Source of the DNA: Schlesneria sp.
GTDB lineage: Bacteria > Planctomycetota > Planctomycetia > Planctomycetales > Planctomycetaceae
Length of the DNA stretch: 64,000 bases
Direction of reading: 5' to 3'
Assembly (NCBI GenBank): GCA_028291515.1
Contig: JAQGHU010000026.1
Location: 1 to 64,000 of the forward strand
The translations under genes and the position numbers were made by a program. Below, one piece after another: positions 7,857 to 63,643 of the stretch; positions within the stretch are counted from its first letter, which is position 1, and every line of letters begins with the position of its first letter. The notes under the pieces were generated by a model that was not told the origin of the DNA, searched no databases, and saw only the letters and a program-made list of their open reading frames with translations.

Positions 7857-8258
7857 CTACTTGCCGCTCGCTTGTTCAGCCGCAAGTTCGGCCATTCGCT
7901 GTGCCGGGACAACCAGGCGATCCCAGTTCTTCAGCATGTAGTCTGGCGGCCCACCCTTGTTCGCGACGGCCTGAGCCACTTGAACGGTCGGCACAAGGAT
8001 AATGGCATCCCACGGGCAAACCGTCAGTTCGTAAGGGTCGCTCTTCTTGGTCGGGATATGAACGCAGACTTCGCATCCGACGCAACGTTCGACATCGATT
8101 TCGCACCACGATTGCAGTACCGAGATCGAATCACCTTCGACTTTATAGATGCAATCGACGGGGCAGACTTCCAAGCACGCTTCGCAGCCCGTGCAGTTAT
8201 CCGCGTTGATTACCGCCACTTCCTTAGGAAGCTTTTTGCGTCCGCCAGCTTTGGCCAT
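7857..8258 (-). CDS. 4Fe-4S dicluster ferredoxin with expanded second cluster motif
   Basis: 133-residue soluble electron carrier. Cluster 1 follows the normal pattern, CTGCEACLEVCP (residues 22-33). Cluster 2 starts CVGCEVC (58-64) but its fourth Cys, in VCPWDAI, comes after a 15-residue loop instead of three, containing HIPTKKSDPYELT. A C-terminal extension of about 40 residues (DYMLKNWDRLVVPAQRMAELA) follows. Bacterial 7Fe/8Fe ferredoxins have similar N-terminal layouts, but the widened motif is unusual. No redox partner gene is adjacent; it converges with the PfkB gene. ATG start at 8258, preceded on the minus strand by GAGA. Confidence 0.93.
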   Translation of the reverse strand: MAKAGGRKKLPKEVAVINADNCTGCEACLEVCPVDCIYKVEGDSISVLQSWCEIDVERCVGCEVCVHIPTKKSDPYELTVCPWDAIILVPTVQVAQAVANKGGPPDYMLKNWDRLVVPAQRMAELAAEQASGK

Positions 8259-8363
8259 GAAGGTCTCTCCGTCATCATCTCAAAACCATGGTGTCTGTAG
8301 GCCGTCCACCACAGCCACTTCGGTCGTCGTCAATCATTATCGGCGGCGAAGGTCGCAGACTGC

Positions 8364-8561
8364 GTGAAGGTCCGCAGATCCATCATAACTTCCGCGATCT
8401 TCTTGATTGTAGTGTGCAGTCACGCGTCAGGCGAGTCGTCCTTCAACGTTTTCTCTACCGCGGGAATTCGTCGGAATTTGAATTTATCACAATACTTGCG
8501 GCATTTTCTATCCACCATCCCCGAAACCCATCCCAATTTGGCGTTTCCATTGGCGAATTGA
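8364..8561 (+). CDS. Possible small exported peptide (signal-peptide ORF)
   Basis: Weak candidate of 65 residues from a GTG. The start reads like a signal peptide: KVRR, then SIITSAIFLIVVCSHASG with a plausible cleavage site. The mature part (FNVFSTAGIRRNLNLSQYLRH and so on) matches nothing known to me and has no cysteine pairs. No strong ribosome binding site is seen. It could also be the front of a decayed longer gene, since no continuation of similar quality follows in another frame. Treated as tentative. Confidence 0.25.
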   Translation: MKVRRSIITSAIFLIVVCSHASGESSFNVFSTAGIRRNLNLSQYLRHFLSTIPETHPNLAFPLAN

Positions 8562-8783
8562 ACAATTCTATCGCCGCTCAAAAGTCCGATCGGACTGTAC
8601 GACTGTGGTTCCAACAAGCGAGATGTCCATATCGGCAGGCATGTATCACTCGCGCGGCGTGGTTTGCCGTCGAAGTCCTGACATGATCTAAAGGCGGTTG
8701 CACGGCGAGGCAAACGGGATACGATGATCTGCTGTTGGAACTCTCGCGAACGTCGGCCCCGGGCCGTTCTCCAGGCACAGTGG
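8562..8783. other. Intergenic region without identified features
   Basis: Together with the doubtful 8364-8561 frame this makes about 520 bases between the ferredoxin gene and the gene at 8784. I see no repeat, RNA fold or promoter worth naming. Confidence 0.4.
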
Positions 8784-9095
8784 ATGAACAGATTTTTAGT
8801 CATCGATTCCACCACATTCGTGTTTTGCGCGAACGATCCGCGCCATGATGGATACGAAGGCCCTGTTGATCGCGTCCTGCTGGAAGAGGAGATGAACAGC
8901 AGTATCTGGAGCAGCGCGACCCCGAAAGAACCGGAGCGGATTCTGGGAGTGAACCCCGCCAACCCGAAGCACTATCGTTCGTTTCTGGACATTGACAACC
9001 TTGAAGAAGACGGTTTTGAGATCGTCGAACCGCGTCAAGATCCCTACATCGTGACATCCTGGGCCGAGTATTTGGCTTGTAAGAAACCTTGCTAG
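8784..9095 (+). CDS. Hypothetical protein
   Basis: 103 residues, unrecognised. Sequence is acidic and soluble: VIDSTTFVFCANDPRHDG, a Pro/Glu-containing middle, then HYRSFLDIDNLEEDGFEIVE and a C-terminal aromatic stretch ending CKKPC. It could be a small regulator or an orphan protein. ATG at 8784 was preferred over an earlier in-frame ATG at 8724 whose 20-residue extension is Arg/Cys-rich and unlike coding sequence of the neighbours. The ribosome site is weak (CAGTGG). Confidence 0.55.
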   Translation: MNRFLVIDSTTFVFCANDPRHDGYEGPVDRVLLEEEMNSSIWSSATPKEPERILGVNPANPKHYRSFLDIDNLEEDGFEIVEPRQDPYIVTSWAEYLACKKPC

Positions 9096-9263
9096 ACAAG
9101 GAATTCCGCGTCGCCGGATGTGTGATCGGAATTCTTCGATTCGACTGCGTCTGGCGACGCATCCACCACGCCGATCGCGGATGGAATTTTGACCCTGATC
9201 GAGTATGCTTCGTGACGTGAATCGGTTCGAACCGCCGCCATTGAAGCTCAGTCCGCTGACTCA

Positions 9264-11405
9264 GTGCATTCATCGCCGCAACGGCCAAGCTTCGTAAAGG
9301 CAGCGGCAGTTTCATGGATTGAAACCGAGAACCAGCAGGATCCCGCCTTGTCATCGTATTCTCCCTTTCTCAGCACTCCCGCAGGCAAGCCGGGTGGCCA
9401 ACCGACCCCAACGACTGGACGCCCCGGTGGCGGCGCGTCGCTGAATGAATTGAATCCGTCGCAACGCGATGCAGTGACGACCCTGTCGGGACCACTGCTC
9501 GTTCTGGCTGGCGCCGGGACCGGGAAGACTCGCGTCATCACATTTCGCATGGCTGAGTTGATTCGTCAGGGGATCGATCCGAATCGAATCTTGTCGGTGA
9601 CGTTTACGAATAAAGCCGCGAAGGAGATGCAGGAGCGAATGAGCCACCTGCTCGGTCGCAAGTTGAAGGCGAAGCCGACGATTTCGACCTTTCACTCGCT
9701 GTGCGTCCGCATCCTGCGCGAAGAGATTGAGATCCTGGGTTACCCCAAGGCTTTCGTGATCTATGATCGAGGCGATCAAGAATCTGCCGCTCGGAAGGCT
9801 TTGCGAGACATCCGGATCAGCGACGCCGCGATGAAGCCGGGCGACCTGATTTCTCGAGTCAGTCGCTGGAAAATGGACGGCATTCTTCCCGAACTCGCAA
9901 AAGACTTCGTCACCGACGATCGCGACTTCCTGGCGGCAACCGCCTACCGCAAGTATCAGCAATCGTTGCGAGCGGCCGGCGCGGTTGACTTTGATGACTT
10001 GCTGCTGCTGACGGCTCAACTGTTCGAAGAGTTTCCCGAAGTGCTGAAACGCTGCCAGGACCGCTTCGATCATGTGCAGATCGATGAGTATCAAGACACC
10101 AACGAGATGCAGTTTCAGATCGTCGGAGCGCTGGTGCGACCGCATCGTAACCTGTGCGTCGTGGGGGATGACGATCAGTCGATCTATGGCTGGCGCGGTG
10201 CCGAAGTGAAACACATCTTGGGCTTTCAACAGCAGTTCCCCGGTGCGAAAGTGGTTCGGCTGCAGGACAACTATCGCTGCACGCATCAGATTATTGAAGT
10301 CGCCAATCAACTGGTGCATCACAACCGCGGGCGGCACGAAAAGACGCTGGTCGCTCATAAGGATGGCGTGGCTGTCGCCGTCAAACCACACCCCGATGAG
10401 CAGGTCGAAGCCGAAGCGGTCGTGCGCGAGATCAGCTATCTCGTCAAAGAGTTGGAGGTCCCGCCGCAAGACATTGCGATCCTGTTCCGCACCAACGAGC
10501 AACCGCGCATTTTCGAAATGGAACTGCGCCGAGTCCAGGTTCCGTATCACCTGGTCGGCGGGCAGTCGTTCTTCGATCGACGCGAAGTGCGCGACATGAT
10601 GGCGTATCTCAAGCTGCTGTCCTGTCCCACGGACGAAGTTTCGCTGCTGCGAATCATCAACGTCCCGACGCGCGGCATCGGTGATTCGTCGGTCGAGAAG
10701 CTGCTGAATCGAGCCGTCAAATCGGGGCGGAAGCTGTTCGAGGTGGTCGCGGATGCGGTGGCCGAGAAAGAGATCACGGTCAAGACGGCAGCAGCGATCG
10801 AGAAGTTCCGACAACTGATGGACGAGTATCGCGAACGCTTCAGTGTGCCGGGCGGACGCCTGTCCGCCACATTTGAATCGCTGATCGAGGTCATCGACTA
10901 CGAGTCTGAGATCGAAAAGCAGTACAAGGACGCCAGCCAGCAGTTGGCTCGAACGGCCGTCATCGAAGAGTGCGTCACCGCGTTGCATCAGTACGAACAA
11001 CGAGCCCACCGCCCCAACTTGACCGAGTTTCTGGAGCAGTCGTCGCTGGCGGGCAACGATCGCGACTTTGGTGAGAACGACGATTTCGAAAAGGCGGCGG
11101 TCAAGCTGATGACGCTGCACAGCGCGAAAGGCCTGGAGTTCCCGCGTGTGTATCTGGTCGGCTGGGAGGAAGGAATCCTGCCGCATCAACGATCCGTCGA
11201 CGACGAATCGCCGACGGCCGTGGAAGAAGAACGTCGTCTGGCTTATGTCGGTATCACGCGAGCCCGCGACTTCCTGACGATCTCTCACGCTATCACTCGC
11301 ATGAAGTGGGGCAAACGCCGCGAGAGTGTTCCGTCGCGATTCTTGCGCGAGATGTATGTCGAGATCGCCAAGAAGAACGCCGCGGGACCGACGACCGATC
11401 ATTGA
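9264..11405 (+). CDS. UvrD/Rep-type superfamily 1 DNA helicase (PcrA/Rep-like)
   Basis: 3'-5' DNA helicase of SF1, for repair or replication restart. All motifs are seen: Q motif LNPSQRDAV (residues 62-70), Walker A AGAGTGKT, motif Ia SVTFTNKAAKEM, TISTFHSLCVRIL, Walker B/motif II IDEYQDTN, motif III VVGDDDQSIYGWRGA, motif IV DNYRCTHQIIEVAN, motif V LMTLHSAKGLEF, and motif VI RRLAYVGITRAR. The GDDDQ form is closer to Rep than to PcrA/UvrD. Length 713 is normal. The GTG at 9264 gives a 60-residue Pro/Gly-rich lead before the Q motif; a TTG near 9348 with AGGA upstream could be the true start. The C-terminal Tudor-like domain of PcrA is absent. Confidence 0.95.
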   Translation: MHSSPQRPSFVKAAAVSWIETENQQDPALSSYSPFLSTPAGKPGGQPTPTTGRPGGGASLNELNPSQRDAVTTLSGPLLVLAGAGTGKTRVITFRMAELIRQGIDPNRILSVTFTNKAAKEMQERMSHLLGRKLKAKPTISTFHSLCVRILREEIEILGYPKAFVIYDRGDQESAARKALRDIRISDAAMKPGDLISRVSRWKMDGILPELAKDFVTDDRDFLAATAYRKYQQSLRAAGAVDFDDLLLLTAQLFEEFPEVLKRCQDRFDHVQIDEYQDTNEMQFQIVGALVRPHRNLCVVGDDDQSIYGWRGAEVKHILGFQQQFPGAKVVRLQDNYRCTHQIIEVANQLVHHNRGRHEKTLVAHKDGVAVAVKPHPDEQVEAEAVVREISYLVKELEVPPQDIAILFRTNEQPRIFEMELRRVQVPYHLVGGQSFFDRREVRDMMAYLKLLSCPTDEVSLLRIINVPTRGIGDSSVEKLLNRAVKSGRKLFEVVADAVAEKEITVKTAAAIEKFRQLMDEYRERFSVPGGRLSATFESLIEVIDYESEIEKQYKDASQQLARTAVIEECVTALHQYEQRAHRPNLTEFLEQSSLAGNDRDFGENDDFEKAAVKLMTLHSAKGLEFPRVYLVGWEEGILPHQRSVDDESPTAVEEERRLAYVGITRARDFLTISHAITRMKWGKRRESVPSRFLREMYVEIAKKNAAGPTTDH

Positions 11406-11856
11406 AGATGCGTCAGTGCTTCGCGACAACTGGTTTGGTGCGGAGATGATGCAGCGTGTGGCGTCGAATCGGCGATGAAAGATTACGATTTGGCAGGTTT
11501 TGTCAGTCCATGGCAGTAAATACGGGGTGTCTGCTATTTTTCCGCGCGCGGTTCTGGATTGGTTGCCGTGACCGAACCGCGTTCCGATTGTCCGTGCCCA
11601 ACGTGGCCGCAATGATCTGGCTCGCTCCGATTGTGTGATTTGAGTCACGAATTCATCCGCATTTCTTGCACTCTGCGAGGGGTCGCGATGGTTGATCCGC
11701 AGGCATCGGCCAGACGTGTTGGCTGTGCTGCCGGCACACCTCCTTATGCCACAGATTGTTTGACTCAAACTAGACGACTATTCGAATAGTTTCGAAATGA
11801 CGAGGAAAATCCGCGCGATGCTGCGAGCCCGGGGCCAAACTGGCGAAGGGCTCACT
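11406..11856. other. Gene-poor intergenic region
   Basis: Start of an 890-base stretch between the helicase gene and the first 44-codon gene. No supported gene or RNA was found; open frames here are short and unconvincing. The 20-bp tandem repeat and a REPIN-like element follow within the same stretch. Confidence 0.45.
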
Positions 11857-11904
11857 GACAATTTTTGACACTGGAGGACAACTTTTGACAATGGGGGACA
11901 AAAC
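11857..11904. repeat. 20-bp tandem repeat, possible insertion-sequence end
   Basis: Two full 20-bp units (11857-11876 and 11877-11896) and a partial third (11897-11904). Unit 1 is GACAATTTTTGACACTGGAG and unit 2 differs at four positions. Repeated TTTTGACA boxes in tandem resemble the multiple terminal repeats of IS21-type elements, but no transposase gene is nearby, so at most a remnant end remains. Confidence 0.6.
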
Positions 11905-12032
11905 AGCCCTGTTTTTAGCAGTTTTCCTCAAAAAAGTGCGACTTTACTGACAGATCAGCGCGCTCGACAAAGTGTGTCGTGATTCGCTTGCGGAGACTCT
12001 GCGTGCGAAGTCGGAGTTTCTCGACTTTCCTT

Positions 12033-12160
12033 CCGTCATTCCCGCGGAGGCGGGAATCCAGTTCTTCGTCGCCGACGTTCGAGGATCTGACGAGATTCAT
12101 CGTTCCTGCATCGACACCGTCAGATGACTCGCTGGATTCCCGCCTGCGCGGGAATGACGG
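12033..12160. repeat. REPIN-like inverted repeat element, copy 1
   Basis: Two 29-bp arms (12033-12061 and 12132-12160) are inverted copies with one mismatch. Each arm is itself a palindrome built on ATTCCCGC...GCGGGAAT. The spacer contains, on the minus strand at 12096-12121, a 26-bp core shared with the copy at 33343-33457 with one mismatch. The doublet-of-hairpins layout resembles REPINs moved by RAYT transposases; that relation is inference. Confidence 0.85.
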
Positions 12161-12189
12161 AGGTGATGCAATCTTCGGAAACCCGCAGC

Positions 12190-12218
12190 TTGCGTATTGT
12201 GGGAAACCGCACTAATCT
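12190..12218 (+). promoter_or_regulatory. Sigma70-type promoter of the first 44-residue peptide gene
   Basis: TTGCGT at 12190-12195, a 17-base spacer, then TAATCT at 12213-12218. The same two hexamers with the same spacing occur exactly 254 bases downstream in front of the second peptide gene, while the leaders between promoter and start codon have diverged. This conservation is the main support. The -10 is 77 bases before the GTG start. Confidence 0.7.
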
Positions 12219-12295
12219 TCGCCCCGCCTTGCGACATGTCTTAAAGCATTTCTGCGATGCCGGTTCTCCCGGTTTGTGGTTGGGAAGATTAAATC

Positions 12296-12430
12296 GTGAA
12301 AGAGCTGTTGATTGTTGTCGCCATTGTCGTAATCGGGAGTGAGGTTGTCCGCGCTTACAACGCATTCGAAGAGCCGCAGGCATCACAAATCCTGCGTCTT
12401 GCCGCTGCCGAGTTTCCGGAAGCAAAGTAG
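12296..12430 (+). CDS. 44-residue membrane peptide, copy 1 of a tandem pair
   Basis: Very short gene with a GTG start and TAG stop. The product begins MKELLIVVAIVVIGSEVV, a single hydrophobic segment with one acidic residue at its end, then YNAFEEPQAS and a helical tail ending EAK. It is paralogous to the 44-codon gene at 12550-12684 in the same 254-bp register. Of the first 28 residues about 19 are identical, while most shared codons differ at the third position, which points to selection on the protein. No clear Shine-Dalgarno sequence is present (AAGATTAAATC precedes the GTG). The N-terminal segment suggests an inner-membrane peptide; function unknown. Confidence 0.75.
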   Translation: MKELLIVVAIVVIGSEVVRAYNAFEEPQASQILRLAAAEFPEAK

Positions 12431-12443
12431 GTCGGACTCAACT

Positions 12444-12472
12444 TTGCGTTCTGCGGAAATCCACACTAATCT
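12444..12472 (+). promoter_or_regulatory. Sigma70-type promoter of the second 44-residue peptide gene
   Basis: TTGCGT at 12444-12449, a 17-base spacer, and TAATCT at 12467-12472, matching the promoter at 12190-12218 base for base in both hexamers. The 13-mer CACTAATCTTCGC around the -10 is identical in both copies. Confidence 0.7.
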
Positions 12473-12549
12473 TCGCATTTGCTTTTCAAAAATGACCGGA
12501 TGTCTTGGAGGCGATCCCGATCGCCGCCCCCCACTTCGAGGTTTTGACT

Positions 12550-12684
12550 GTGAAAGAATTATTGATCGTCATCGCTGTTGTGGTGATCGGAAGCGAGCTC
12601 GTTCACGTGTTCAATACACTCGAAGAACCACAGTCTTCCCGCGATATGCGAATGACCGCCTCACTGACGCGAGAGGCGAAGTAG
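12550..12684 (+). CDS. 44-residue membrane peptide, copy 2 of a tandem pair
   Basis: GTG start, TAG stop, 44 residues, exactly the length of the upstream copy. The product begins MKELLIVIAVVVIGSELV, then FNTLEEPQSS, then a tail ending REAK. The hydrophobic stretch and the EEPQ(A/S)S block are the conserved parts; the C-terminal 14 residues differ except for the final Glu-Ala-Lys. The leader contains a GC-rich hairpin (GGCGATC-CC-GATCGCC at 12510-12525) that the first copy replaces by a different small hairpin. A single-span inner-membrane peptide is likely. Candidates by analogy are stress peptides or toxin-like membrane peptides, but nothing in the sequence decides this. Confidence 0.75.
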   Translation: MKELLIVIAVVVIGSELVHVFNTLEEPQSSRDMRMTASLTREAK

Positions 12685-12970
12685 TTCGTCGCGAGACTCT
12701 GACGTCCAGTTGAATTCACAGGCTCGCGTGCATCGATCTGAGTGCTGACGCAGTGGGGCTCATTGCTTTTGCGACACTTGAAAGCAAAGGCAGATTTTCA
12801 CGCGAAGACGCGGAGTCGCGAAGAGGGAAAGCCCGACTGATTCCCAAACGTAAATGGTAGGCTTTGCGCGTGGAGTGAATCAGATATCGACTCTAATCCG
12901 TAGTTTGAGTACTTTCCGTGGCTTTGATGGTAATCCACGGATGGACGCACAGACATGAAGGAACGGATTC
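12685..12970. other. Intergenic region with a degenerate direct-repeat-like segment
   Basis: No gene. The stretch 12794-12829 (TTTTCACGCGAAGACGCGG and following) resembles a dispersed repeat I recall from many environmental genomes, but no second copy lies in this window. Confidence 0.3.
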
Positions 12971-13345
12971 ATGAGAATCATTTTTCACGGTTGGCGAACG
13001 CTTGGCATGTTCTCATTGATCTTGGCGGGTGCGGGGATCGCGTGGATCAACAGCAGCCAGGATCGAACGGTTGCGACCACACCGCTGTTGAGCATCAGTC
13101 CAGAGCCCAGTCAACCCGTGACCGCACGTGAATCGGTTCCGTTTTCTGTGGAACTGCCTCCCCCAACTTTGGAAGTGTTCGAGGAAACTTCTGTGGCTCC
13201 TGTTTCATCTCGCCTGATGGGAGTCGAACAACGAATCGGCATTACATTCGATGGGGCGACAGGCGAAATCTTCGACGACGTTTCCGACAACGAGCCCATC
13301 AAAGAGAGCGAAGTCATTGATAATGAGTTGCCTCCTTTAAGGTGA
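12971..13345 (+). CDS. Membrane-anchored hypothetical protein with FHGWR N-terminus
   Basis: 124 residues: one N-terminal membrane anchor (FSLILAGAGIAWI) after MRIIFHGWRTLG, then a hydrophilic, Pro/Ser/Glu-rich segment ending in acidic sequence (FDDVSDNEPIKESEVIDNE). The first 12 residues follow the M(K/R)xxFHGWR pattern of the proteins at 13943-14434 and 25542-25994, but the rest is different and lacks their C-terminal IPYWS segment. It may be a truncated or recombined family member. ATG at 12971 with AAGGA ten bases upstream is a good start. Confidence 0.65.
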   Translation: MRIIFHGWRTLGMFSLILAGAGIAWINSSQDRTVATTPLLSISPEPSQPVTARESVPFSVELPPPTLEVFEETSVAPVSSRLMGVEQRIGITFDGATGEIFDDVSDNEPIKESEVIDNELPPLR

Positions 13346-13533
13346 TTAACGGGTGATGCAGGTCTGCCCAACGCTACTGGCGAACTGAAGGAGCTCATTT
13401 CTCTTCGCGACTTCACGTGAAAATTGCGTTTCGTTTTGGCGGGCTGATTTGTGACGAAATGATGGCCGAGGCGACGATTCGATGGCACGATACGATCGCT
13501 TCTCGGTATATCAATTCTAGAAGAGGCGGCCAA

Positions 13534-13893
13534 ATGAAGATGACCCGATTGATCCCGATGCTGCCTGTCAGGAGCATGCCCCTGAGCGTGAATTTCTACT
13601 GCAACATGCTGGGCTTCGAGGTGGAGCAACGAAACGACGATTGGGGTTGGGCGATGCTGCGCTTCGATGAATGTCGCTTGATGGTCGATCAATCAATCAA
13701 CGCCCATCCCGGCACATTCCGCGACTCAATCCTCTATCTGTACCCGGAAGATATCGTGGAGTACCACCAGCAGGTGCGAAGCAACGGCCTGACGGTACCG
13801 GACCTGGAAACGACCTTCTACGGTCTGACCGAATTTCGGATCGACGACCCCGACGGAAACAGGTTGTGGATCGGACAAAGCATGAACACCTGA
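13534..13893 (+). CDS. VOC (glyoxalase/bleomycin-resistance) fold protein
   Basis: 119 residues of the vicinal oxygen chelate superfamily: beta-alpha-beta-beta-beta pairs seen in MTRLIPMLPVRSMPLSVNFY, then CNMLGFEVEQRNDDWGWAML, and the second half ending FRIDDPDGNRLWIGQS. This resembles bleomycin-binding or fosfomycin-type members; the metal or ligand residues cannot be assigned with confidence, and many VOC proteins of this size have unknown substrates. ATG at 13534 has AGAGG upstream; the open frame reaches back to 13417 without family similarity. It converges with an FHGWRR gene. Confidence 0.88.
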   Translation: MKMTRLIPMLPVRSMPLSVNFYCNMLGFEVEQRNDDWGWAMLRFDECRLMVDQSINAHPGTFRDSILYLYPEDIVEYHQQVRSNGLTVPDLETTFYGLTEFRIDDPDGNRLWIGQSMNT

Positions 13894-13942
13894 GGGCCAG
13901 TACTCTGATCCCTCGCGCTGTGCCCTTTGCTCATTCGTTAAC

Positions 13943-14434
13943 TCACGCCCGATTCCGTGGCTTCCAGAGAATCAGGTACAGGGAGAGAATCGTCAGCGGG
14001 GCCACCATCGACCAGTACGGTATCCCCCAGACTCGGCATCGATAGGTCGTTGCTGGCAAAGCACCAGCCCAGTCGGATGTATCTTGGAACTCGCCAAAGT
14101 CAAAGCCAGCGAATCGTGTTCGACGCCGCCATGATTCCTTCTTGAATGTTGGCGATACGTCCTGATAAGGAGTGTATTTACCGGCCCCCTGTAATCCCAG
14201 GTTCCAGCGAAACGATACGCCCGGCCAGTGACTTTTAGCCCCTTCCACGGCCTGACGGTCTTCCAACCAGAGCATGGAATCGCACGAGGTCAGGCGCTGC
14301 ATGCTTGTTCTGGTGTAGTGCGCCAGTCGATCGAACACAATCCGACTGCGCATCCAGAACCCCATCAGTGCCAACGCCATCACCAGCGTTACACACCCCA
14401 CTCTTCTTCGCCAACCATGGAAGAACTCACGCAT
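13943..14434 (-). CDS. FHGWRR-family two-segment membrane protein
   Basis: 163 residues. N-terminal MREFFHGWRRRVG leads into a membrane helix (CVTLVMALALMGFWMRS). A middle hydrophilic domain contains Trp-rich blocks such as FAGFDFGEF. The C-terminus has GIPYWSMVAPLTILS followed by LYLILWKPRNRA, a second membrane helix with a basic end. The same N- and C-terminal blocks occur in the 25542-25994 protein. I recall multi-copy families like this in planctomycetes, always without a known role. Both termini probably face the cytoplasm, with the variable middle outside; this is inference from the positive-inside rule. Confidence 0.8.
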   Translation of the reverse strand: MREFFHGWRRRVGCVTLVMALALMGFWMRSRIVFDRLAHYTRTSMQRLTSCDSMLWLEDRQAVEGAKSHWPGVSFRWNLGLQGAGKYTPYQDVSPTFKKESWRRRTRFAGFDFGEFQDTSDWAGALPATTYRCRVWGIPYWSMVAPLTILSLYLILWKPRNRA

Positions 14435-14590
14435 CGCGAATCACCCGTCGCTTGTGGAGTGGCCAATCTACGAATCCGTAACGATAAAGCTGCAGCGGGA
14501 AATAAACCGCCATTATACAGCAATATATTGGCGATGAACGATTATGCTTCTTTGACGATCTGGCTTGCAATATTTCAGTGGAGTTGTACC

Positions 14591-14596
14591 TATAAT
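14591..14596 (+). promoter_or_regulatory. Candidate -10 box (TATAAT) upstream of the 14638 gene
   Basis: Perfect TATAAT 42 bases before the ATG in an AT-rich region. The nearest -35-like hexamer, TTGCAA at 14565-14570, gives a long 20-base spacer, so the promoter assignment is only tentative. Confidence 0.4.
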
Positions 14597-14637
14597 CGCC
14601 TTACGGTTTTTTGTCTCTTGAATGTAAAGGTTTTAGC

Positions 14638-15135
14638 ATGGCGAAGAAGAAGACGGTTAAGGTTGTCAAAAAGACCCTGTTCAATCCAGCAGAAATTGAG
14701 CAAGCTTCGGGCGGCAGCAACAGTCACGGCAGGGTCACGAAAGCGAGCGTTTTTCGTGATTTCCTTACTTATAATCCGGATGCGACATTTGGGCCAAGCA
14801 AAGCAGCATTAACCGCAGCACTCGCCGAACATGATCTAGAGTTGAAAGATACTGACGCAGTACCGTTTGGCGTCGCAAAGAGAAAGCTTTCAAGCGATGG
14901 CGGTATCAATGTTGGTACTGGCAAAAGCACTGGAGCACACGGTGGGAAGGAAGTCACGTTGAAGCAGTTCGCTGCTTTGACGAGCGATATCGATCCTGCC
15001 ATGTTGCAGGCCAGCATCAAAATTATCTCTTCCGTTGGTGGTGTAGACATCGCCAAAAGGCTGGCGGCGAAATGGGCTGAACTCTGCGAAGCAATCGGTG
15101 AAGATAACGCACGCAAAGCAATCGAGGTGCTGTAA
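14638..15135 (+). CDS. Hypothetical protein with basic N-terminus, possibly DNA-associated
   Basis: 165 residues. Starts with a Lys-rich head (MAKKKTVKVVKKTLFNPAE), then a helical domain KASVFRDFLTYNPDATFGPS with ALTAALAEHDLELKD, a Gly/Lys linker, and a C-terminal helical block (SIKIISSVGGVDIAKRLAAKW). The pattern of RDFL-x2-NP-x-A followed by ALAEH and a final VGG-x2-A block resembles planctomycete proteins I associate with small winged-helix-like domains; function unproven. ATG at 14638 with AAAGG ten bases upstream. Its stop overlaps the ATG of the next gene by one base, so the two are co-translated. The 3' end carries one copy of a 21-bp repeat. Confidence 0.8.
   Translation: MAKKKTVKVVKKTLFNPAEIEQASGGSNSHGRVTKASVFRDFLTYNPDATFGPSKAALTAALAEHDLELKDTDAVPFGVAKRKLSSDGGINVGTGKSTGAHGGKEVTLKQFAALTSDIDPAMLQASIKIISSVGGVDIAKRLAAKWAELCEAIGEDNARKAIEVL
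15108..15128 (+). repeat. 21-bp direct repeat, left copy (inside 3' end of 14638 gene)
   Basis: Identical over 21 bases to 15456-15476. The two copies bracket the 103-residue gene and begin 348 bases apart. The left copy encodes ARKAIEV of the upstream protein, so the right copy looks like a duplicated fragment of this coding end. Confidence 0.85.
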
Positions 15136-15446
15136 TGGACAATGGGTACGTTTGGACGTGGCCAGTGTACTTAGTGTATTTGCAGCATGATGGCCAAGTC
15201 GAGGTGCCAATTGTTCCCGAAGGTGAAGGCGGTCAGTGCCTGAATGGGTTGGCTGTCTTCACCGAAGAACTTTTGGCAGAGCGATTCCGTGCTAAGTGGA
15301 AGGCAACTGCCGTAATCGTTCCGGTGCTTAGGATTGAACTGCTGGACACCATTAAACGTCTCTTGCCCTTCATCGAAGCGACTCATGTCGTGATCGATCC
15401 CGACGACCATGTAAGTTGCCCATGGATACCGTTTGCCGAGATTTGA
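15135..15446 (+). CDS. Hypothetical protein of two-gene cassette
   Basis: 103 residues, not recognised. Aromatic start (MDNGYVWTWPVYLVYLQHDG), a beta-rich first half, then a helix EELLAERFRAKWKATA and IELLDTIKRLLPFIEATHVV with a final Pro/Trp segment (CPWIPFAEI). It resembles a small soluble partner protein more than a membrane protein. Start ATG overlaps the previous stop (TAATG). A 21-bp copy of the upstream gene's 3' end follows ten bases after its stop, so this gene may have arrived by insertion or partial tandem duplication. Confidence 0.75.
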   Translation: MDNGYVWTWPVYLVYLQHDGQVEVPIVPEGEGGQCLNGLAVFTEELLAERFRAKWKATAVIVPVLRIELLDTIKRLLPFIEATHVVIDPDDHVSCPWIPFAEI

Positions 15447-15455
15447 AGTCAGTGC

Positions 15456-15476
15456 CGCACGCAAAGCAATCGAGGT
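15456..15476 (+). repeat. 21-bp direct repeat, right copy
   Basis: Second copy of the sequence at 15108-15128, now outside any gene, just after the 103-residue gene and nine bases before the terminator hairpin. If the intervening 348 bases were removed, the upstream frame would run through to a stop in the terminator region. Confidence 0.85.
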
Positions 15477-15484
15477 TACACAAA

Positions 15485-15520
15485 AAAACCTTGCCGCAAC
15501 CTATTGTGCGGCAAGGTTTT
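15485..15520. terminator. Bidirectional hairpin terminator
   Basis: Perfect 14-bp stem, arms 15485-15498 and 15507-15520. On the minus strand it is followed by a run of seven T (complement of 15482-15488 in part), fitting termination of tRNA-Val transcription. On the plus strand the arm ends in TTTT, so it may also end the two-gene cassette. Confidence 0.85.
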
Positions 15521-15525
15521 AGAGG

Positions 15526-15599
15526 TGGACGATACAAGACTCGAACTTGTGACCTCCACGATGTCAACGTGGCGCTCTAACCAACTGAGCTAATCGTCC
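15526..15599 (-). tRNA. tRNA-Val (anticodon GAC)
   Basis: Cloverleaf read on the minus strand: acceptor GGACGAT pairs with ATCGTCC, D-loop AGCTCAGTTGGTTAGAGC, anticodon arm CCACG-TTGACAT-CGTGG with anticodon GAC (Val, codons GUC/GUU), a five-base variable region, and T-arm around TTCGAGT. The discriminator is A. CCA is not encoded (the sequence continues CCT). The hairpin at 15485-15520 follows it. Confidence 0.95.
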
Positions 15600-15759
15600 G
15601 GGTAGGGGCTTCAACGAGGTGAGTCGCTGTTCCCTGCAGGAGGGGAAACGATAAGTTCCGGACTTCGCCGGGTCAAGTGAGCGGTGGGGATTCGCCAACT
15701 GGCTGGTGGAGAAGTGGTTGCGTGGGAACAGTCGTGATTGATTTGATGTCTGTGACGGA

Positions 15760-16146
15760 TCAGGCAGTTTCGGGCAAGGCGATCGCCGTGGCGGTGGCCA
15801 TGGTGCGGGTGTGAGAGATCGTGATCAGGAGTTCGCCAATCCCCAGTGAGGTGGCGTACTTACGTGTAGTGCCGTGCAGGGTCACGTACGGCTGGCCGCT
15901 GGGGCGGACGAGGATTTCGATGTCGGTCCAGCCGACATCTTTCGTAAAGCCGGTTCCCAAGGCCTTCATGACCGCCTCTTTCGCGGCCCAGCGGCCGGCA
16001 TAATGCTGAGCGGCTTCGCGGCGGGGCTGGCAGTGCTGGATTTCTGCGGGGGTGAACGTCCGCTCCAGAAAGTGGTCGCCGTGGTCGGCGATCATTTTCG
16101 CGATGCGTTCGACGTCGACGATGTCGGTTCCCAAGCCCAGGATCAT
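15760..16146 (-). CDS. acpS: Holo-[acyl-carrier-protein] synthase
   Basis: 128-residue AcpS transfers 4'-phosphopantetheine from CoA to the Ser of apo-ACP, activating fatty acid synthesis. Family motifs are clear: GLGTDIVDVERI at residues 4-15 with the Mg-binding Asp (D8), RWAAKEAVMKALGTG around 52-66 with the catalytic Glu, and the C-terminal ISHTRTMATATAIAL. Length is typical. Its start overlaps the stop of the upstream membrane protein gene (ATGA), placing it last in a minus-strand run that includes an oligopeptide transporter. The shared transcription unit has no obvious functional reason. Confidence 0.97.
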   Translation of the reverse strand: MILGLGTDIVDVERIAKMIADHGDHFLERTFTPAEIQHCQPRREAAQHYAGRWAAKEAVMKALGTGFTKDVGWTDIEILVRPSGQPYVTLHGTTRKYATSLGIGELLITISHTRTMATATAIALPETA

Positions 16147-16700
16147 GCTGCAGCCTTCGGTTGGCGAACCCAGAAAGCCAGGCAGACGGCTCCGGCTGTT
16201 CCGAGCAGCAGTTCGCCCCCCCAGAAGACCTCGGGCCAGGGACTGGACCAGTCTCCCAACAGGGAGACTCGGCGGATGAGGTACGTGTGCAGGCGATCGC
16301 CGAATGTGGGGATTTCCTCTTTCGCCGCGGTCTCTCCCATGCGAGCGGCAACGAGTGCCGCGACGGGATGAAAATTGTTGTCGACTGGTTTGACTGTTGG
16401 CTGCAATGTCACGGTTTGGCAGACGCTGCCGACCAGCCCGGCGAGTGTTGTCGCTGCGATCAACGCGATGACGGTGCTGGTCACTCGGACGTGCAACAGG
16501 GCGGCGAGTCGGGTCTGAATGAAAGCGTTCAGCAATCCAAACGCCAATGAGAACAGACCCAGCAATCGAATGCGGGCGGGTGCATGCGCCGCGACGAGCG
16601 CCAGTGCCGCTGTGGCAATCAACGCCGCTAGAGCGAACATCAGGATTGAGCCCGATTCAGGCGGGGCCGGGTCAGATTCGGGCAGAGACGTGTTGGTCAT
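16143..16700 (-). CDS. Small multi-span membrane protein
   Basis: 185 residues. After a short Pro/Ser-rich head there are two close hydrophobic segments (ILMFALAALIATAALALVAA and LLGLFSLAFGLLNAFI), a third (VTSTVIALIAATTLAGLVGS), then a hydrophilic part and a final hydrophobic end (LLLGTAGAVCLAFWV). No family recognised. ATG at 16700 follows the permease gene by 19 bases, and its stop overlaps acpS by four bases, so all three genes are probably co-transcribed. A longer start at 16733 would overlap the permease gene and has no additional support. Confidence 0.8.
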   Translation of the reverse strand: MTNTSLPESDPAPPESGSILMFALAALIATAALALVAAHAPARIRLLGLFSLAFGLLNAFIQTRLAALLHVRVTSTVIALIAATTLAGLVGSVCQTVTLQPTVKPVDNNFHPVAALVAARMGETAAKEEIPTFGDRLHTYLIRRVSLLGDWSSPWPEVFWGGELLLGTAGAVCLAFWVRQPKAAA

Positions 16701-16719
16701 GGAGTGGCAACGGATTCGA

Positions 16720-17712
16720 TCAGGAATTCTCAAAGGTGACGCGCGGGTTTACGACGACGTACAGGATGTCGGAGATGAGAATGCCCAGCAACGTCAAAAC
16801 AGCGGACAGCATCAGTGTCATCAACACCATATCGTATTCGCGCTCCTCCATGCTGCGGTACGACAACAGTCCCATTCCTGGGATCTGGAAGATCACCTCA
16901 ATAATGACGCTGCCACCGACCAGAAAGGGCAACAATGACGCCAATAGCGTAATCACGGGGAAGAGGCTGTTTCGCAGGGCGTGAACCAGGATGACTCGAC
17001 TGCGGCCTGCACCTTTGGCCTCGGCAGTGCGAATGTAGTCCTGTCGAATGACTTCCAGCATGCCGGCTCGCATCTGACGACTGACGTAGGCTAATCCGCC
17101 GTAGGTCATGCAGATCACGGGGAGGACAATGTGATGAGCGTAGTCCTGTAGTTGCTGCCAAGTTGTCATCGAATCGAAGTCGCGGGATGTCAGATTGAGA
17201 ATGGGTAACCAGCCCATAAACAGCATTCGCAGGATCTCGGCCACCCAGAACGAAGGGAGGCTGTACATGATGAAGAGTAAGACGGTGGTGATGCGATCCG
17301 TTGGCGAATTGGGATTCGCCGCACTGATGATCCCCAACGGGATTGCCGCCACGTAGATCAACACGAACACGATCGAGTTTATGATCACGGTGATTTTGAG
17401 GGCGGCCCAAAGTTCGCCCCAGATCGGCTGATTCTTCTGGAACGACACTAAGTCGCCATGGGCCAACCGATTCAGGAACTTGACGAACTGAATGTGCAGC
17501 GGCTGATCAAACGCCCACCGCTCGCGAAAAACCTTCTCGGCCGATTCGGTGCCGCGGTCTGCGTTGAGCCCTGCCGCGGCCTGGCCGACTCCCCCATATT
17601 TCAGCGAGGCGGGGTCACCCGGGGCCAGCTTGATGACGATGAACGAGATCACCAGAATTCCGAACAGCGTCGGGATCATCAGCAACAGTCGTTTGATCAG
17701 ATAGTTCGCCAT
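16720..17712 (-). CDS. Oligopeptide ABC transporter permease (DppB/OppB family)
   Basis: 330-residue inner-membrane permease of the peptide/nickel transporter group. MANYLIKRLLLMIPTLFGIL is the standard first helix of OppB/DppB, and the loop GAGRSRVILVHALRNSLFPV carries the EAA-type coupling motif that contacts the ATPase. Length and layout of six helices match the family, though the first periplasmic loop (about residues 35-100) is slightly long. The substrate-binding lipoprotein gene lies immediately upstream. The usual second permease (DppC) and ATPases are not here and must lie elsewhere. Confidence 0.95.
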   Translation of the reverse strand: MANYLIKRLLLMIPTLFGILVISFIVIKLAPGDPASLKYGGVGQAAAGLNADRGTESAEKVFRERWAFDQPLHIQFVKFLNRLAHGDLVSFQKNQPIWGELWAALKITVIINSIVFVLIYVAAIPLGIISAANPNSPTDRITTVLLFIMYSLPSFWVAEILRMLFMGWLPILNLTSRDFDSMTTWQQLQDYAHHIVLPVICMTYGGLAYVSRQMRAGMLEVIRQDYIRTAEAKGAGRSRVILVHALRNSLFPVITLLASLLPFLVGGSVIIEVIFQIPGMGLLSYRSMEEREYDMVLMTLMLSAVLTLLGILISDILYVVVNPRVTFENS

Positions 17713-17763
17713 CAGCTGCCAACGTCTTGGTTCGGGATCAATCTAACCTGCGAATGCATTTCT

Positions 17764-20241
17764 TTAGTGCAATTGCTCGTCTTTGGGAACGTACCATTCG
17801 GACAGATCGAAGCCGGGACGCAGCCGATACCATTTGACGTTGCGGAACCGCTTGTGGTAGGCCCCGAACTCTTTGGGGATCCACAGAAACATAAAGGGTT
17901 GTTCGGAATCGAGCAGGCGGTGGAATGACGCGTGGATTCGCTTTCGCTTTTCCAGATCGGTGGTGACTCGCAGCATTTCAATCAGCGAATCGGCTTCGGG
18001 ATTGGCAAATGAAATGGTGTTGCTGCCTCGGTTGTGTCGGCCAGCCCCAGAACTATGCCAGATCTGAAACGGGTCGGCCTCGGGTGCTGTGGCCCAACTG
18101 AGCGTGGTCACATCGCATTCTTTGGAACGCAGTTTCTCGATGAACGAAGCCCATTCACTTTCGTCGATCTGCAGATCGATACCGGCCTGCTTCAGATTCT
18201 TCTGCAGGATCAGGCAACGTTGCGTGTTGATGGGCCTTCCTTTGGCGGTCCGCAGTGTCACCTTAAACTTCACACCGTCGCGATCCAGAATTCCGTCGTT
18301 GTCGGTATCGATCCACCCGGCCGCCGCCAGCAGTTCGCTGGCGGTGTCTGGATCGTAGCCCAGGGGGGCTACTTCCTGATCGTAACCCGGTCCAAAGTAG
18401 TATTGCGTTCCCGAGACGACGACCCCGGCACCATGTAGCTTGGTGTCGACGAAGTCCTGTCGATCGAACAACAACGCCATCGCGATCCGAACGCGGCGAT
18501 CCTGGAATTGCGGTGCCAGGAAATTCCAGCCGAAGAACGAGAACATCGGTGAGTACCACGAGGCCTGGACGTAATCGTCACGTTGCGACTTATCGATGTT
18601 GGGCCAGTCCTCGAAGTATTGTTCGGGGGCCATGTCGTAGAAGAAATCGATTTCTCCAGCTTTCAAGGCCGCCATCGCGGTGACTTGATCGATGATGAAC
18701 TTATAAACGAGTCGGTCCAAATGACCCGCGCGCGGCTTATTCCAATAGTTGGCATTCTTAACGAGTTCCACGCGATCGTTCGGTTGCCATTTTTCGATGA
18801 TGTAAGGCCCGGTGCCAAGCGGAGCGCGGTTGTAGCGACTGTCGGTGTTGAAGAACTTTCCGAACTCCTGGCCCCGAGCGCTGATCTTGTTCTGTGTTTT
18901 CTCTTCGTCCGGAGTGAGGCTATCGAGGACAAGTTCACGTCCCTGTTCCTTGAAGATATTCGAGAAGAAATGGAATGGCGGTGTATACGCAGTGATCCCG
19001 AACGTGAATTCGAATGCCAGGAAGTATTGCTGGCGATATCGCATGCGGACCACGTGCAGGTCTAACGCACTGCACTCAATCAAGTCCTCGTAATAGGTCC
19101 GAATACTATCGCCATCGACGTGCGGGCTGTTCAGCAAGGCATAGGCGAACTCGATATCTTTCGACGTAAACGGCGTCCCGTCAGACCATTTGACATCATC
19201 ACGCAGGTAGTACGTGTAGTAGGTCTCCAAGTGCAGGTCGGTCCAGTCTCCTTCTTTCAACGTCAATGTTGGCTCGCCGGATACTCTGATCCATTCATGC
19301 AGTGGGTTCTCGGGCGTCGCGGGCGTGATCGTCAGCGATTTGTCATCGCCACGAGTCGCCTTTCCGTAGACTTCTGCGCCGACTTTGATTGTGTACTTAC
19401 CGGTGGAAAGCGCTGAGATGTGAACCTTGCCGTCGGGATTGCTCCAGTAGTGATATCCGGTGAGGGGTGCGCCTTCGACGGACCCGATTGGATAGACGCC
19501 CACCCACACCTCACCAATGGGCTTTCCATCTTTATCCGAAGTCGTGAAGGTGACGACCGGTGGTTCGGAAGGCTTTTTGCCATCCGTGGCAGGGGGTGGG
19601 GCGGTGTATTCGAACTCCAGCGTCGTCTGTGGGGTTCCCCCTTCGGCGGTGATGCGGCGTTCGTGTCCGGGATAGTCGGGCGACAGCTTGATCGAATCTT
19701 CGATCACCCATTGCTTGGCAATCAGGGGCTCAAATTCAAAAGTTTCGGGGTTCTGACGTGCCAAGCCTTCTTGAACCTGGTGCAGACACATGTACGTGCG
19801 GACGGCCGAATTCTCGGTGATCGGGTTCAGGACCTTGGGCTCTGACGGAAAACGAATCGTCAAGGTATCGCCGTCGACGGGCTGGCCCGATTTGTCGGCA
19901 AGGGGATTGCCCACATCAGCGGGAATCTTGCCGATCAATTGCAAGGTTTCGCTTTTCAATGCCTGTCGAGGGATCTTAATCCCGTCGACCTCGGTCATGA
20001 TTTCGATCTTGGGAACGTCGGGATAGTCTTCCCAGACTCCTGTCTTTGCACTGGTCGACTGGCCGTCAGACTTATCGCTTGGAGTGTTCGGCTTAGCGGT
20101 CGGTGTCGATGAGTCAGATGTTTCCGTGATCTCTGTTCGCTTGGGCAGAGGAACCGGAGAACTTGATGTTGTGCATCCGCAGACCAGCAGCGAGAGCGAG
20201 TACAAAGTGGCGAACGCAGCACGAAGTTCTTTCCGAGCCAT
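17764..20241 (-). CDS. Extracellular solute-binding lipoprotein, family 5 (peptide), with internal insertion
   Basis: 825 residues, where members usually have 500-600. Residues 1-23 form a lipoprotein signal ending LLVCGC, so the protein is probably lipid-anchored. A Ser/Thr/Pro linker (24-75) follows. The SBP_bac_5 fold starts at about 125 (DTLTIRFPSEPKVLNPI), is broken near 190, and resumes at about 343 with YTYYLRDDVKWSDGTPF. The inserted part, about 150 residues, contains DGKPIGEVWVGVYPIGSVEG and GKYTIKVGAEVYGKA, reading like a carboxypeptidase-regulatory or transthyretin-like beta-sandwich. The C-terminal lobe is normal (SNTISFANPEADSLI). It precedes the permease gene by 51 bases. Confidence 0.92.
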   Translation of the reverse strand: MARKELRAAFATLYSLSLLVCGCTTSSSPVPLPKRTEITETSDSSTPTAKPNTPSDKSDGQSTSAKTGVWEDYPDVPKIEIMTEVDGIKIPRQALKSETLQLIGKIPADVGNPLADKSGQPVDGDTLTIRFPSEPKVLNPITENSAVRTYMCLHQVQEGLARQNPETFEFEPLIAKQWVIEDSIKLSPDYPGHERRITAEGGTPQTTLEFEYTAPPPATDGKKPSEPPVVTFTTSDKDGKPIGEVWVGVYPIGSVEGAPLTGYHYWSNPDGKVHISALSTGKYTIKVGAEVYGKATRGDDKSLTITPATPENPLHEWIRVSGEPTLTLKEGDWTDLHLETYYTYYLRDDVKWSDGTPFTSKDIEFAYALLNSPHVDGDSIRTYYEDLIECSALDLHVVRMRYRQQYFLAFEFTFGITAYTPPFHFFSNIFKEQGRELVLDSLTPDEEKTQNKISARGQEFGKFFNTDSRYNRAPLGTGPYIIEKWQPNDRVELVKNANYWNKPRAGHLDRLVYKFIIDQVTAMAALKAGEIDFFYDMAPEQYFEDWPNIDKSQRDDYVQASWYSPMFSFFGWNFLAPQFQDRRVRIAMALLFDRQDFVDTKLHGAGVVVSGTQYYFGPGYDQEVAPLGYDPDTASELLAAAGWIDTDNDGILDRDGVKFKVTLRTAKGRPINTQRCLILQKNLKQAGIDLQIDESEWASFIEKLRSKECDVTTLSWATAPEADPFQIWHSSGAGRHNRGSNTISFANPEADSLIEMLRVTTDLEKRKRIHASFHRLLDSEQPFMFLWIPKEFGAYHKRFRNVKWYRLRPGFDLSEWYVPKDEQLH

Positions 20242-33342: not shown

Positions 33343-33457
33343 CCCCCACCGTCATTCCCGCGCAGGCGGGAATCCAGCGAGCGAAGAGACGGTGTCGATG
33401 CAGCAACGATGAAGCCGACGGACTGGATTCCCGCCTGCGCGGGAATGACGGTGGGGG
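33343..33457. repeat. REPIN-like inverted repeat element, copy 2 (perfect arms)
   Basis: Arms 33343-33377 and 33423-33457 are perfect 35-bp inverted copies. Each arm contains the ATTCCCGC...GCGGGAAT hairpin. The spacer has the 26-bp core at 33388-33413 that copy 1 carries on the other strand with one mismatch. It sits between the Fpg-like gene and the aldo/keto reductase gene and could form a large cruciform; it may also act as a terminator between the convergent genes. Confidence 0.95.
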
Positions 33458-63430: not shown

Positions 63431-63477
63431 ATCCGGCTTATTCCCTGCGCGATCGCGGCTTTCTCCGACTGATCTTT

Positions 63478-63643
63478 CCGTCATTTCCCCCGCAAGCGGG
63501 AATCCAGCTAGCCGTGGAAAGATGGCGATGCAGCACCGACCAAACTTGTCCCGCCGCGATTACTGGTCAGGTCTGGCGACGGAACTACGAGATTCTTGCC
63601 TCCGGGAGTGACCTGCGAATCGACTCCCGCCCTGCGCACACGG
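63478..63643. repeat. REPIN-like element, decayed copy 3
   Basis: Left arm at 63478-63507 resembles the arms of copies 1 and 2 (CCGTCATT, then a C-run with GCGGGAATCCAG), and the core at about 63521-63539 (GATGGCGATGCAGCACCGA) matches with a two-base gap. A degenerate right arm may lie at 63618-63643. The rest of the spacer differs. Confidence 0.55.

What the first reader, a model, noticed from the sequence alone, without database searches (positions are those of the whole stretch)
12190..12684. Tandem pair of 44-codon membrane-peptide genes in exact 254-bp register, each with its own promoter
Seen: GTG genes at 12296-12430 and 12550-12684 both have 44 residues and TAG stops. Both products start MKELLIV and continue with a hydrophobic stretch, GSE, then EEPQ(A/S)S. 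Most shared residues use different third codon bases (for example ctg/tta for Leu4, gtt/gtc for Val7). The promoter TTGCGT-N17-TAATCT is identical in both and keeps the same distance to the start, while the leaders between them differ strongly. Inference: purifying selection on a very small protein and on its promoter. These genes are too short for normal annotation, so they may be a hidden small-protein family.
Basis: partly seen in the sequence, partly recalled or inferred. Interest (0 to 1): 0.78.

Follow-up and report, generated by a model that had tools for sequence, protein, structure and literature searches.

The report
Clade-specific small membrane protein pair
Two neighbouring, very short genes in a planctomycete bacterium make related 44-residue membrane peptides that selection keeps in a few close relatives together with the DNA switch in front of most of them, so this looks like a genuine but unannotated small-protein family whose job is unknown.

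Summary
Both 44-codon GTG genes (12296-12430, 12550-12684) stand in exact 254-nt register, each 77 nt after the same TTGCGT-N17-TAATCT element. They are protein-coding: homologues occur in three other genomes of the genus, and changes fall mainly on third and synonymous positions. Of 170 family genomes, 4 carry convincing members; these group together on a helicase-gene tree (89/88). No library family was found (Pfam, NCBIfam, PHROGs, PADLOC, PDB), and no phage, plasmid or viral-contig relative. New here: the conserved upstream element is longer than a sigma-70 promoter and recurs before the G011 copy at another locus. In 15 genomes of the genus its loose form occurs 8 times: 4 before family members, 4 inside long frames of the other strand. 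The G013 copy lacks it. Neighbour genes differ at three loci. AlphaFold predicts a membrane helix, a break at EEP and a short second helix. Best reading: a lineage-restricted membrane peptide that tunes a membrane partner; a type I toxin-like peptide is the main rival. Expression and function are not shown.

The parts
12173..12218 (+). 46-nt block identical between this genome and G012 (TTCGG-N4-CCGCA, then TTGCGT-N17-TAATCT)
   Evidence: alignment of the two syntenic loci; the leader just downstream is far less alike
12190..12222 (+). upstream element of gene 1: TTGCGT-N17-TAATCT with a TGYGG-N4-CCRCA dyad in the spacer (12198-12211)
   Evidence: the dyad was read by eye
12219..12295 (+). 77-nt leader of gene 1, not conserved, no unusual fold (z 0.32)
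12296..12430 (+). gene 1 (own1): 44-aa predicted single-pass membrane peptide, GTG start, TAG stop
12444..12476 (+). upstream element of gene 2, same pattern (dyad 12452-12465); 13 nt lie between gene 1's stop codon and it
12473..12549 (+). 77-nt leader of gene 2, near background identity to leader 1, no unusual fold (z -0.41)
12550..12684 (+). gene 2 (own2): 44-aa paralogue of gene 1, GTG start, TAG stop; the search found only one member in G012, the counterpart of gene 1

Best explanation
This is a lineage-restricted family of single-pass membrane small proteins, duplicated in tandem in this genome, each gene a stand-alone unit of upstream element plus gene. Shown by sequence: both frames are coding and under purifying selection; the upstream element is conserved and accompanies 4 of the 5 known genes, one of them at a different locus. 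Predicted: residues about 3-25 form a membrane helix, a conserved EEP ends it, and residues about 28-39 form a short amphipathic helix. Inferred: the peptide inserts in a membrane and uses its helix plus the EEPxxSxxxR tail to bind and tune a membrane protein, as AcrZ-, CydX- or KdpF-type small proteins do (recalled), with dosage or timing set by a regulator that reads the dyad in the element. I put existence as a real expressed gene family at about 0.9, and the partner-binding mechanism at about 0.5.
For: Homologues in G012, G011 and G013. The third codon position is the least alike in 10 of 10 pairs, only just so for own2/G013 (0.45/0.60/0.43); column shuffles reach the observed protein similarity in 0 to 31 of 5000, 31 being the close pair own1/G012. 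Thirteen invariant positions in 45 columns, start included, six of them (N22 E25 E26 P27 S30 R34) in the hydrophilic tail. AlphaFold: helices 2-24 and 27-38 in model numbering (one less than in the peptide), mean pLDDT 84.4, pTM 0.46. Element: 46 nt identical to G012; in 15 genomes of the genus the loose pattern gives 8 matches, 4 just upstream of family members and 4 inside long open frames on the opposite strand, with 1 match for the reversed control. A Shine-Dalgarno-like GGAAG, GAGG or GGAGG precedes all five genes (by eye). Neighbours differ: after the uvrD-like gene here and in G012; before a xylose-isomerase-like TIM-barrel gene in G011; divergent from an ABC-transporter gene in G013.
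Against: No partner, phenotype, transcript or translation is known. Only five members were found, so the alignment behind the model is thin, and a lone helix is an easy prediction. The hydrophobic stretch is modest (best 19-residue Kyte-Doolittle mean 1.46 to 2.28), and the second helix is only weakly amphipathic. The G013 copy lacks the element (best match 3 mismatches). The loose pattern was widened after I had seen the G011 site. Lack of a conserved neighbour removes the usual clue to a partner.
Confidence: 0.5

Rival explanations
1. A type I toxin-like membrane peptide of the Fst/Ldr/Zor sort: small, hydrophobic, duplicated in tandem, tightly controlled because it harms the membrane, with an RNA antitoxin not yet seen.
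For: PMC8309996 (passages) names a size under 60 aa, hydrophobicity and a putative membrane helix as common features, and says ZorO was found by looking for tandemly duplicated small hydrophobic proteins. It describes Fst as a helix over residues 4-26 with a bend at G15, essential charged residues 2 and 3, and a negatively charged tail; these peptides have charged residues 2 and 3, an invariant glycine at 14 and an acidic EE in the tail.
Against: No Pfam family at E 10 for 4 members and no Rfam family but a tRNA in the window. Only 13 nt lie between stop 1 and element 2, so a convergent antisense gene does not fit inside the 254-nt unit. Leaders are near background identity, of different length (77, 77, 85, 26 nt), and the three folded do no better than shuffles. 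Tail net charge is 0 to -2 where the review finds cationic residues general. In Fst the tail is dispensable and a helix proline is essential; here the tail is conserved and the helix has no proline.
Confidence: 0.22
2. The peptides are translated by-products, and what is selected is regulation by translation (a leader peptide or attenuator) or the DNA element itself.
For: Gene 1 lies directly upstream of gene 2, and the scan of 11400-13400 lists no terminator-like site between them. Short upstream ORFs are often regulatory (recalled).
Against: Downstream genes differ at the three loci, leaders are not conserved, and conservation runs into the hydrophilic tail, with protein similarity above column shuffles.
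Confidence: 0.08
3. The genes belong to a mobile or selfish element that moves upstream element and gene together.
For: Three different loci in four genomes; the similarity with G012 ends right after gene 1; a palindromic repeat element (12032-12161) that the G012 locus lacks ends 11 nt before the 46-nt block.
Against: No terminal repeats of the unit were reported in 11000-14500. The gene 1 peptide has no match in 50,697 phage and 72,556 plasmid records, and the profile none in viral contigs. Carriers form one group, so vertical descent with rearrangement suffices.
Confidence: 0.12
4. Chance ORFs in a recent tandem duplication.
For: Short ORFs are common: 120 of at least 30 aa overlap 8000-18000.
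Against: Leaders and flanks have lost nearly all similarity while element and frame keep it; homologues in three other genomes; 0 of 5000 shuffles for own1/own2.
Confidence: 0.02

Closest known systems
Small single-pass membrane regulators (AcrZ, CydX, KdpF, MgtS: recalled; CydX also seen as listing and abstract start of PMC4325964)
   Same: Under 50 aa, one predicted membrane helix, conserved residues outside the helix
   Different: Those have known partners (recalled); no sequence relation to any library family found
Type I toxins, Fst/Ldr/Zor group (PMC8309996, passages)
   Same: Size, helix, charged residues 2 and 3, tandem duplication, a glycine within the helix
   Different: No family match, no antitoxin RNA found, acidic or neutral tail with a conserved EEPxxS motif and predicted second helix, unconserved leader
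[quoted passage not shown]
   Same: This kind: short, taxon-restricted, without annotation
   Different: A conserved upstream element and a tandem copy add evidence of regulated function; whether the catalogue already holds the sequence was not tested

Membership tests
Type I toxin-antitoxin (Fst/Ldr/Zor) | Toxin sequence matches a known family | tested here: not met
   Pfam and NCBIfam scans of 4 of 5 members at E 10: no family; the fifth (G012), Pfam only, at E 0.01: none
Type I toxin-antitoxin (Fst/Ldr/Zor) | Antisense or divergent RNA antitoxin | tested here: inconclusive
   Rfam at gathering scores: only a tRNA in the window; no second conserved element beside the genes seen by eye; RNA data needed
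Type I toxin-antitoxin (Fst/Ldr/Zor) | Structured leader (as reported for zorO) | tested here: not met
   z-scores 0.32, -0.41, 1.23 for 3 of 5 leaders; G011 and G013 leaders not folded
Type I toxin-antitoxin (Fst/Ldr/Zor) | Toxic to the cell when overexpressed | not testable with these tools
   bench test
Small membrane-protein regulators | Single membrane helix, under about 60 aa | tested here: met
   AlphaFold helix and hydrophobicity; insertion itself not shown
Small membrane-protein regulators | Binds a named membrane complex | not testable with these tools
   no conserved neighbour to suggest one
Protein-coding gene family | Homologues under purifying selection | tested here: met
E. coli-type sigma-70 promoter | At least 4 of 6 in both hexamers | tested here: not met
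   3 of 6 each by eye; scan did not list it
Phage, plasmid or defence gene | Match in phage, plasmid, viral-contig or defence libraries | tested here: not met
   PHROGs best E 0.13 for 4 members; viral contigs with the profile, plasmids and phages with the gene 1 peptide; PADLOC for the two window peptides

The most novel reading that the evidence does not exclude
A small-protein gene born within one planctomycete clade that carries a private regulatory element, seen before no other gene in the genomes searched, and that relocates with it as a unit; the element's dyad would be read by a dedicated regulator, and the tandem copies are diverging towards different partners. It would be a compact system in which birth, relocation and duplication of a regulated membrane micropeptide can be followed.
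Probability: 0.2. Interest if true: 0.55.

Novelty: new member of a known kind. Interest (0 to 1): 0.36.

Why it matters
Small membrane proteins are under-annotated. Here a family can be recognised from sequence alone, with a conserved control element, in a clade whose sequenced relatives lack it, so its origin and role could be tested. [quoted passage not shown]

Tried and rejected
Tried without result: Pfam, NCBIfam and PHROGs for 4 of 5 members (best PHROG E 0.13), Pfam for the fifth at E 0.01, PADLOC for the two window peptides; PDB sequences with the profile; phages and plasmids with the gene 1 peptide, viral contigs with the profile (61 stretches fitted a pattern, none was confirmed); Rfam (only a tRNA). 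Eight weak family-wide matches at E 0.015 to 0.1 were judged chance after reading the alignments. One match outside the family, in G210, E 1.5e-4 for one genome in a search of 397, is a membrane-helix-like stretch with YNQYEE before a zinc-ribbon-like tail; left open and not counted as a member.

Operator idea: I looked for TTCGG-N4-CCGAA after seeing two such palindromes before the G013 gene. It occurs 24, 24, 24 and 23 times in this genome, G011, G012 and G013, against 11, 10, 7 and 7 for the reversed control. Dinucleotide make-up may explain the excess; I did not examine the sites. The looser TGNGGN4CCNCANTAATC with 2 mismatches gave 71 forward and 83 reverse here against 32 and 34 in the control; I could not use it. 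The only two exact matches listed for this genome are the two genes' elements.

Empty-site comparison: upstream of the isomerase the G011 flank has no match (E 0.01) to the same flank in four other genomes, and the G013 flank matches only 77 to 96 nt next to the ABC gene, in 3 of 4 genomes, so no clean insertion site could be drawn.

My first promoter pattern was mis-spaced by one base and found nothing; one search is the corrected one. The loose pattern was widened after seeing the G011 site, so that match is partly post hoc; the counts over 15 genomes and the reversed control (1 match) are the check. The first alignments of whole units were spoiled because the units overlap, and were not used. 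YN00 failed for 7 of 10 pairs and NG86 dS was saturated for 5 of 10.

Full report
What is there. The window lies in a genome of 8.6 Mb in 119 contigs. Over the 254-nt register only two stretches are clearly alike: the 33-nt element (27 of 33) and the coding frame with a few bases before it; the leader (26 of 77) and the flanks are near background. Similarity islands in otherwise randomised sequence point to an old duplication with two selected parts.

Coding. A search of 59 whole genomes with the gene 2 peptide gave 7 with a match at E 1; this genome, G012 and G011 (E 3e-8 or better) and G013 (E 0.001) proved real, the other 3 were at 0.28 to 0.97. With a five-row profile, 12 of 170 family genomes matched at E 0.1, and the same 4 stand out (E 2e-22 or better, though they are the profile's own rows; the next is 0.015). 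In 397 genomes drawn from the class, overlapping the former, 5 matched at E 0.01: the same 4 and G210 at 1.5e-4. GTDB contigs gave 3 loci, on contigs of the same lengths as those of the three relatives. Identity by codon position is 0.67/0.81/0.36 for own1 against own2 and 0.88/0.95/0.67 for own1 against G012. dN and dS for own1 and G012 are 0.066 and 0.749 (NG86) or 0.116 and 0.300 (YN00); for the neighbouring helicase gene 0.012 and 0.372 or 0.013 and 0.320. So the peptides evolve faster than the helicase but below neutrality. In 10 of 10 pairs protein similarity exceeds that of nearly all column-shuffled alignments (0 to 31 of 5000 as high).

Spread and history. On a tree of the flanking helicase from 15 genomes of the genus (one row, G013, a 368-residue piece) the four carriers form one group: support 89/88, 86% of bootstrap trees, one change against a shuffled mean of 3.7, 1 of 500 shuffles as low. 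That fork misses the tool's mark for strong support and the root is a midpoint, so one origin is likely but not certain. This genome and G012 share the locus: DNA identity is 90% up to about 11974 and 80% over 12173-12438, and similarity ends there. By third positions own1 and own2 (0.36) are further apart than own1 and G012 (0.67), so the duplication seems older than the split and G012 lost its second copy; with about 42 codons this is only suggestive.

The upstream element. The 46 nt 12173-12218 are identical in G012, while the following leader is poorly alike and gapped. Within it TTGCGT and TAATCT flank a dyad TGYGG-N4-CCRCA that both copies keep although its two variable bases differ (by eye). 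The strict pattern with up to 3 mismatches occurs in 15 genomes only at the two genes and the G012 gene. A looser form, TTGC-N13-18-CCRCA-N0-1-TAATCY, occurs 8 times: 2 here, 1 in G012 and 1 in G011, each before a family member, and 4 elsewhere (1 here, one each in G010, G001 and G005), each of these 4 inside a long open frame of the opposite strand. The reversed control occurs once. In G011 the element ends 26 nt before the gene, at a different locus. G013 lacks it but has two perfect TTCGG-N4-CCGAA palindromes 46 nt apart before its gene. TCTAATCC also recurs before the ABC gene in five genomes (by eye), which makes TAATC[CT] a plausible -10 element in this genus. The element is thus probably a promoter with a built-in operator, not a plain sigma-70 promoter; this is inference.

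The peptide. Invariant positions are the start, E3, L4, L5, V7, V12, G14, N22, E25, E26, P27, S30 and R34. The model is a helix 2-24 and a helix 27-38 in model numbering (one less than in the peptide), with the break at E26-P27. The second helix is weakly amphipathic (moment 0.37 to 0.44). All five genes have a Shine-Dalgarno-like motif (by eye).

How it may work. Neighbours are a uvrD-like helicase gene here and in G012, a DUF559 gene and a TIM-barrel gene in G011, and an ABC-transporter gene in G013; none is shared between the three loci. The protein therefore acts alone or on something encoded elsewhere. A membrane helix with a conserved soluble motif fits a peptide that binds a membrane partner. 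The type I toxin rival gains from size, tandem copies and a layout that recalls Fst as the review describes it (PMC8309996, passages); it loses from the acidic or neutral but conserved tail, the lack of leader structure and the lack of space for an antisense gene between the copies. The two are separable on the bench.

Literature. I searched for planctomycete small proteins, Schlesneria genomes, tandem type I toxins and planctomycete promoters. I saw listings and abstract starts, and passages of two papers. No listed title describes this family; that is not proof that it is unpublished, as only the best-ranked papers were listed and most subscription papers are not held.

Noticed in passing
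window 12032-12161, also about 33346-33454 and, weaker, 63476-63550: A palindromic repeat element (arms CGTCATTCCCGC...GCGGGAATGACG) has two clear copies and one weaker one in the window; the copy at 12032-12161 is absent from the collinear G012 locus, so it was inserted here or lost there, just upstream of the peptide genes.
   Followed up: partly
window 11478-11536: Non-coding block after the uvrD-like gene that is 98% identical over 57 nt to G012, above its surroundings; neither strand folds better than shuffles.
   Followed up: partly
window 11870-11970: Non-coding stretch (about 90% identical to G012 over 107 nt from 11852) that folds better than shuffles (z -2.74, 1 of 200 as good); may be a terminator-like or RNA element.
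   Followed up: partly
L101, L100, L102, L099, L103, upstream of an ABC-transporter gene: A promoter-like block with TCTAATCC recurs in five genomes of the genus and hints at a genus-typical -10 element TAATC[CT] (by eye).
   Followed up: partly
L093 (G210), match at about 1501-1572: A 77-residue open frame with an N-terminal hydrophobic stretch, YNQYEE and a zinc-ribbon-like CxxC...CxxC tail weakly matches the peptide profile (E 1.5e-4); possible distant relative or chance.
   Followed up: partly
L031 (G013), upstream of the peptide gene: Two perfect palindromes TTCGG-N4-CCGAA, 46 nt apart, between the peptide gene and the divergent ABC gene; possible operators.
   Followed up: partly
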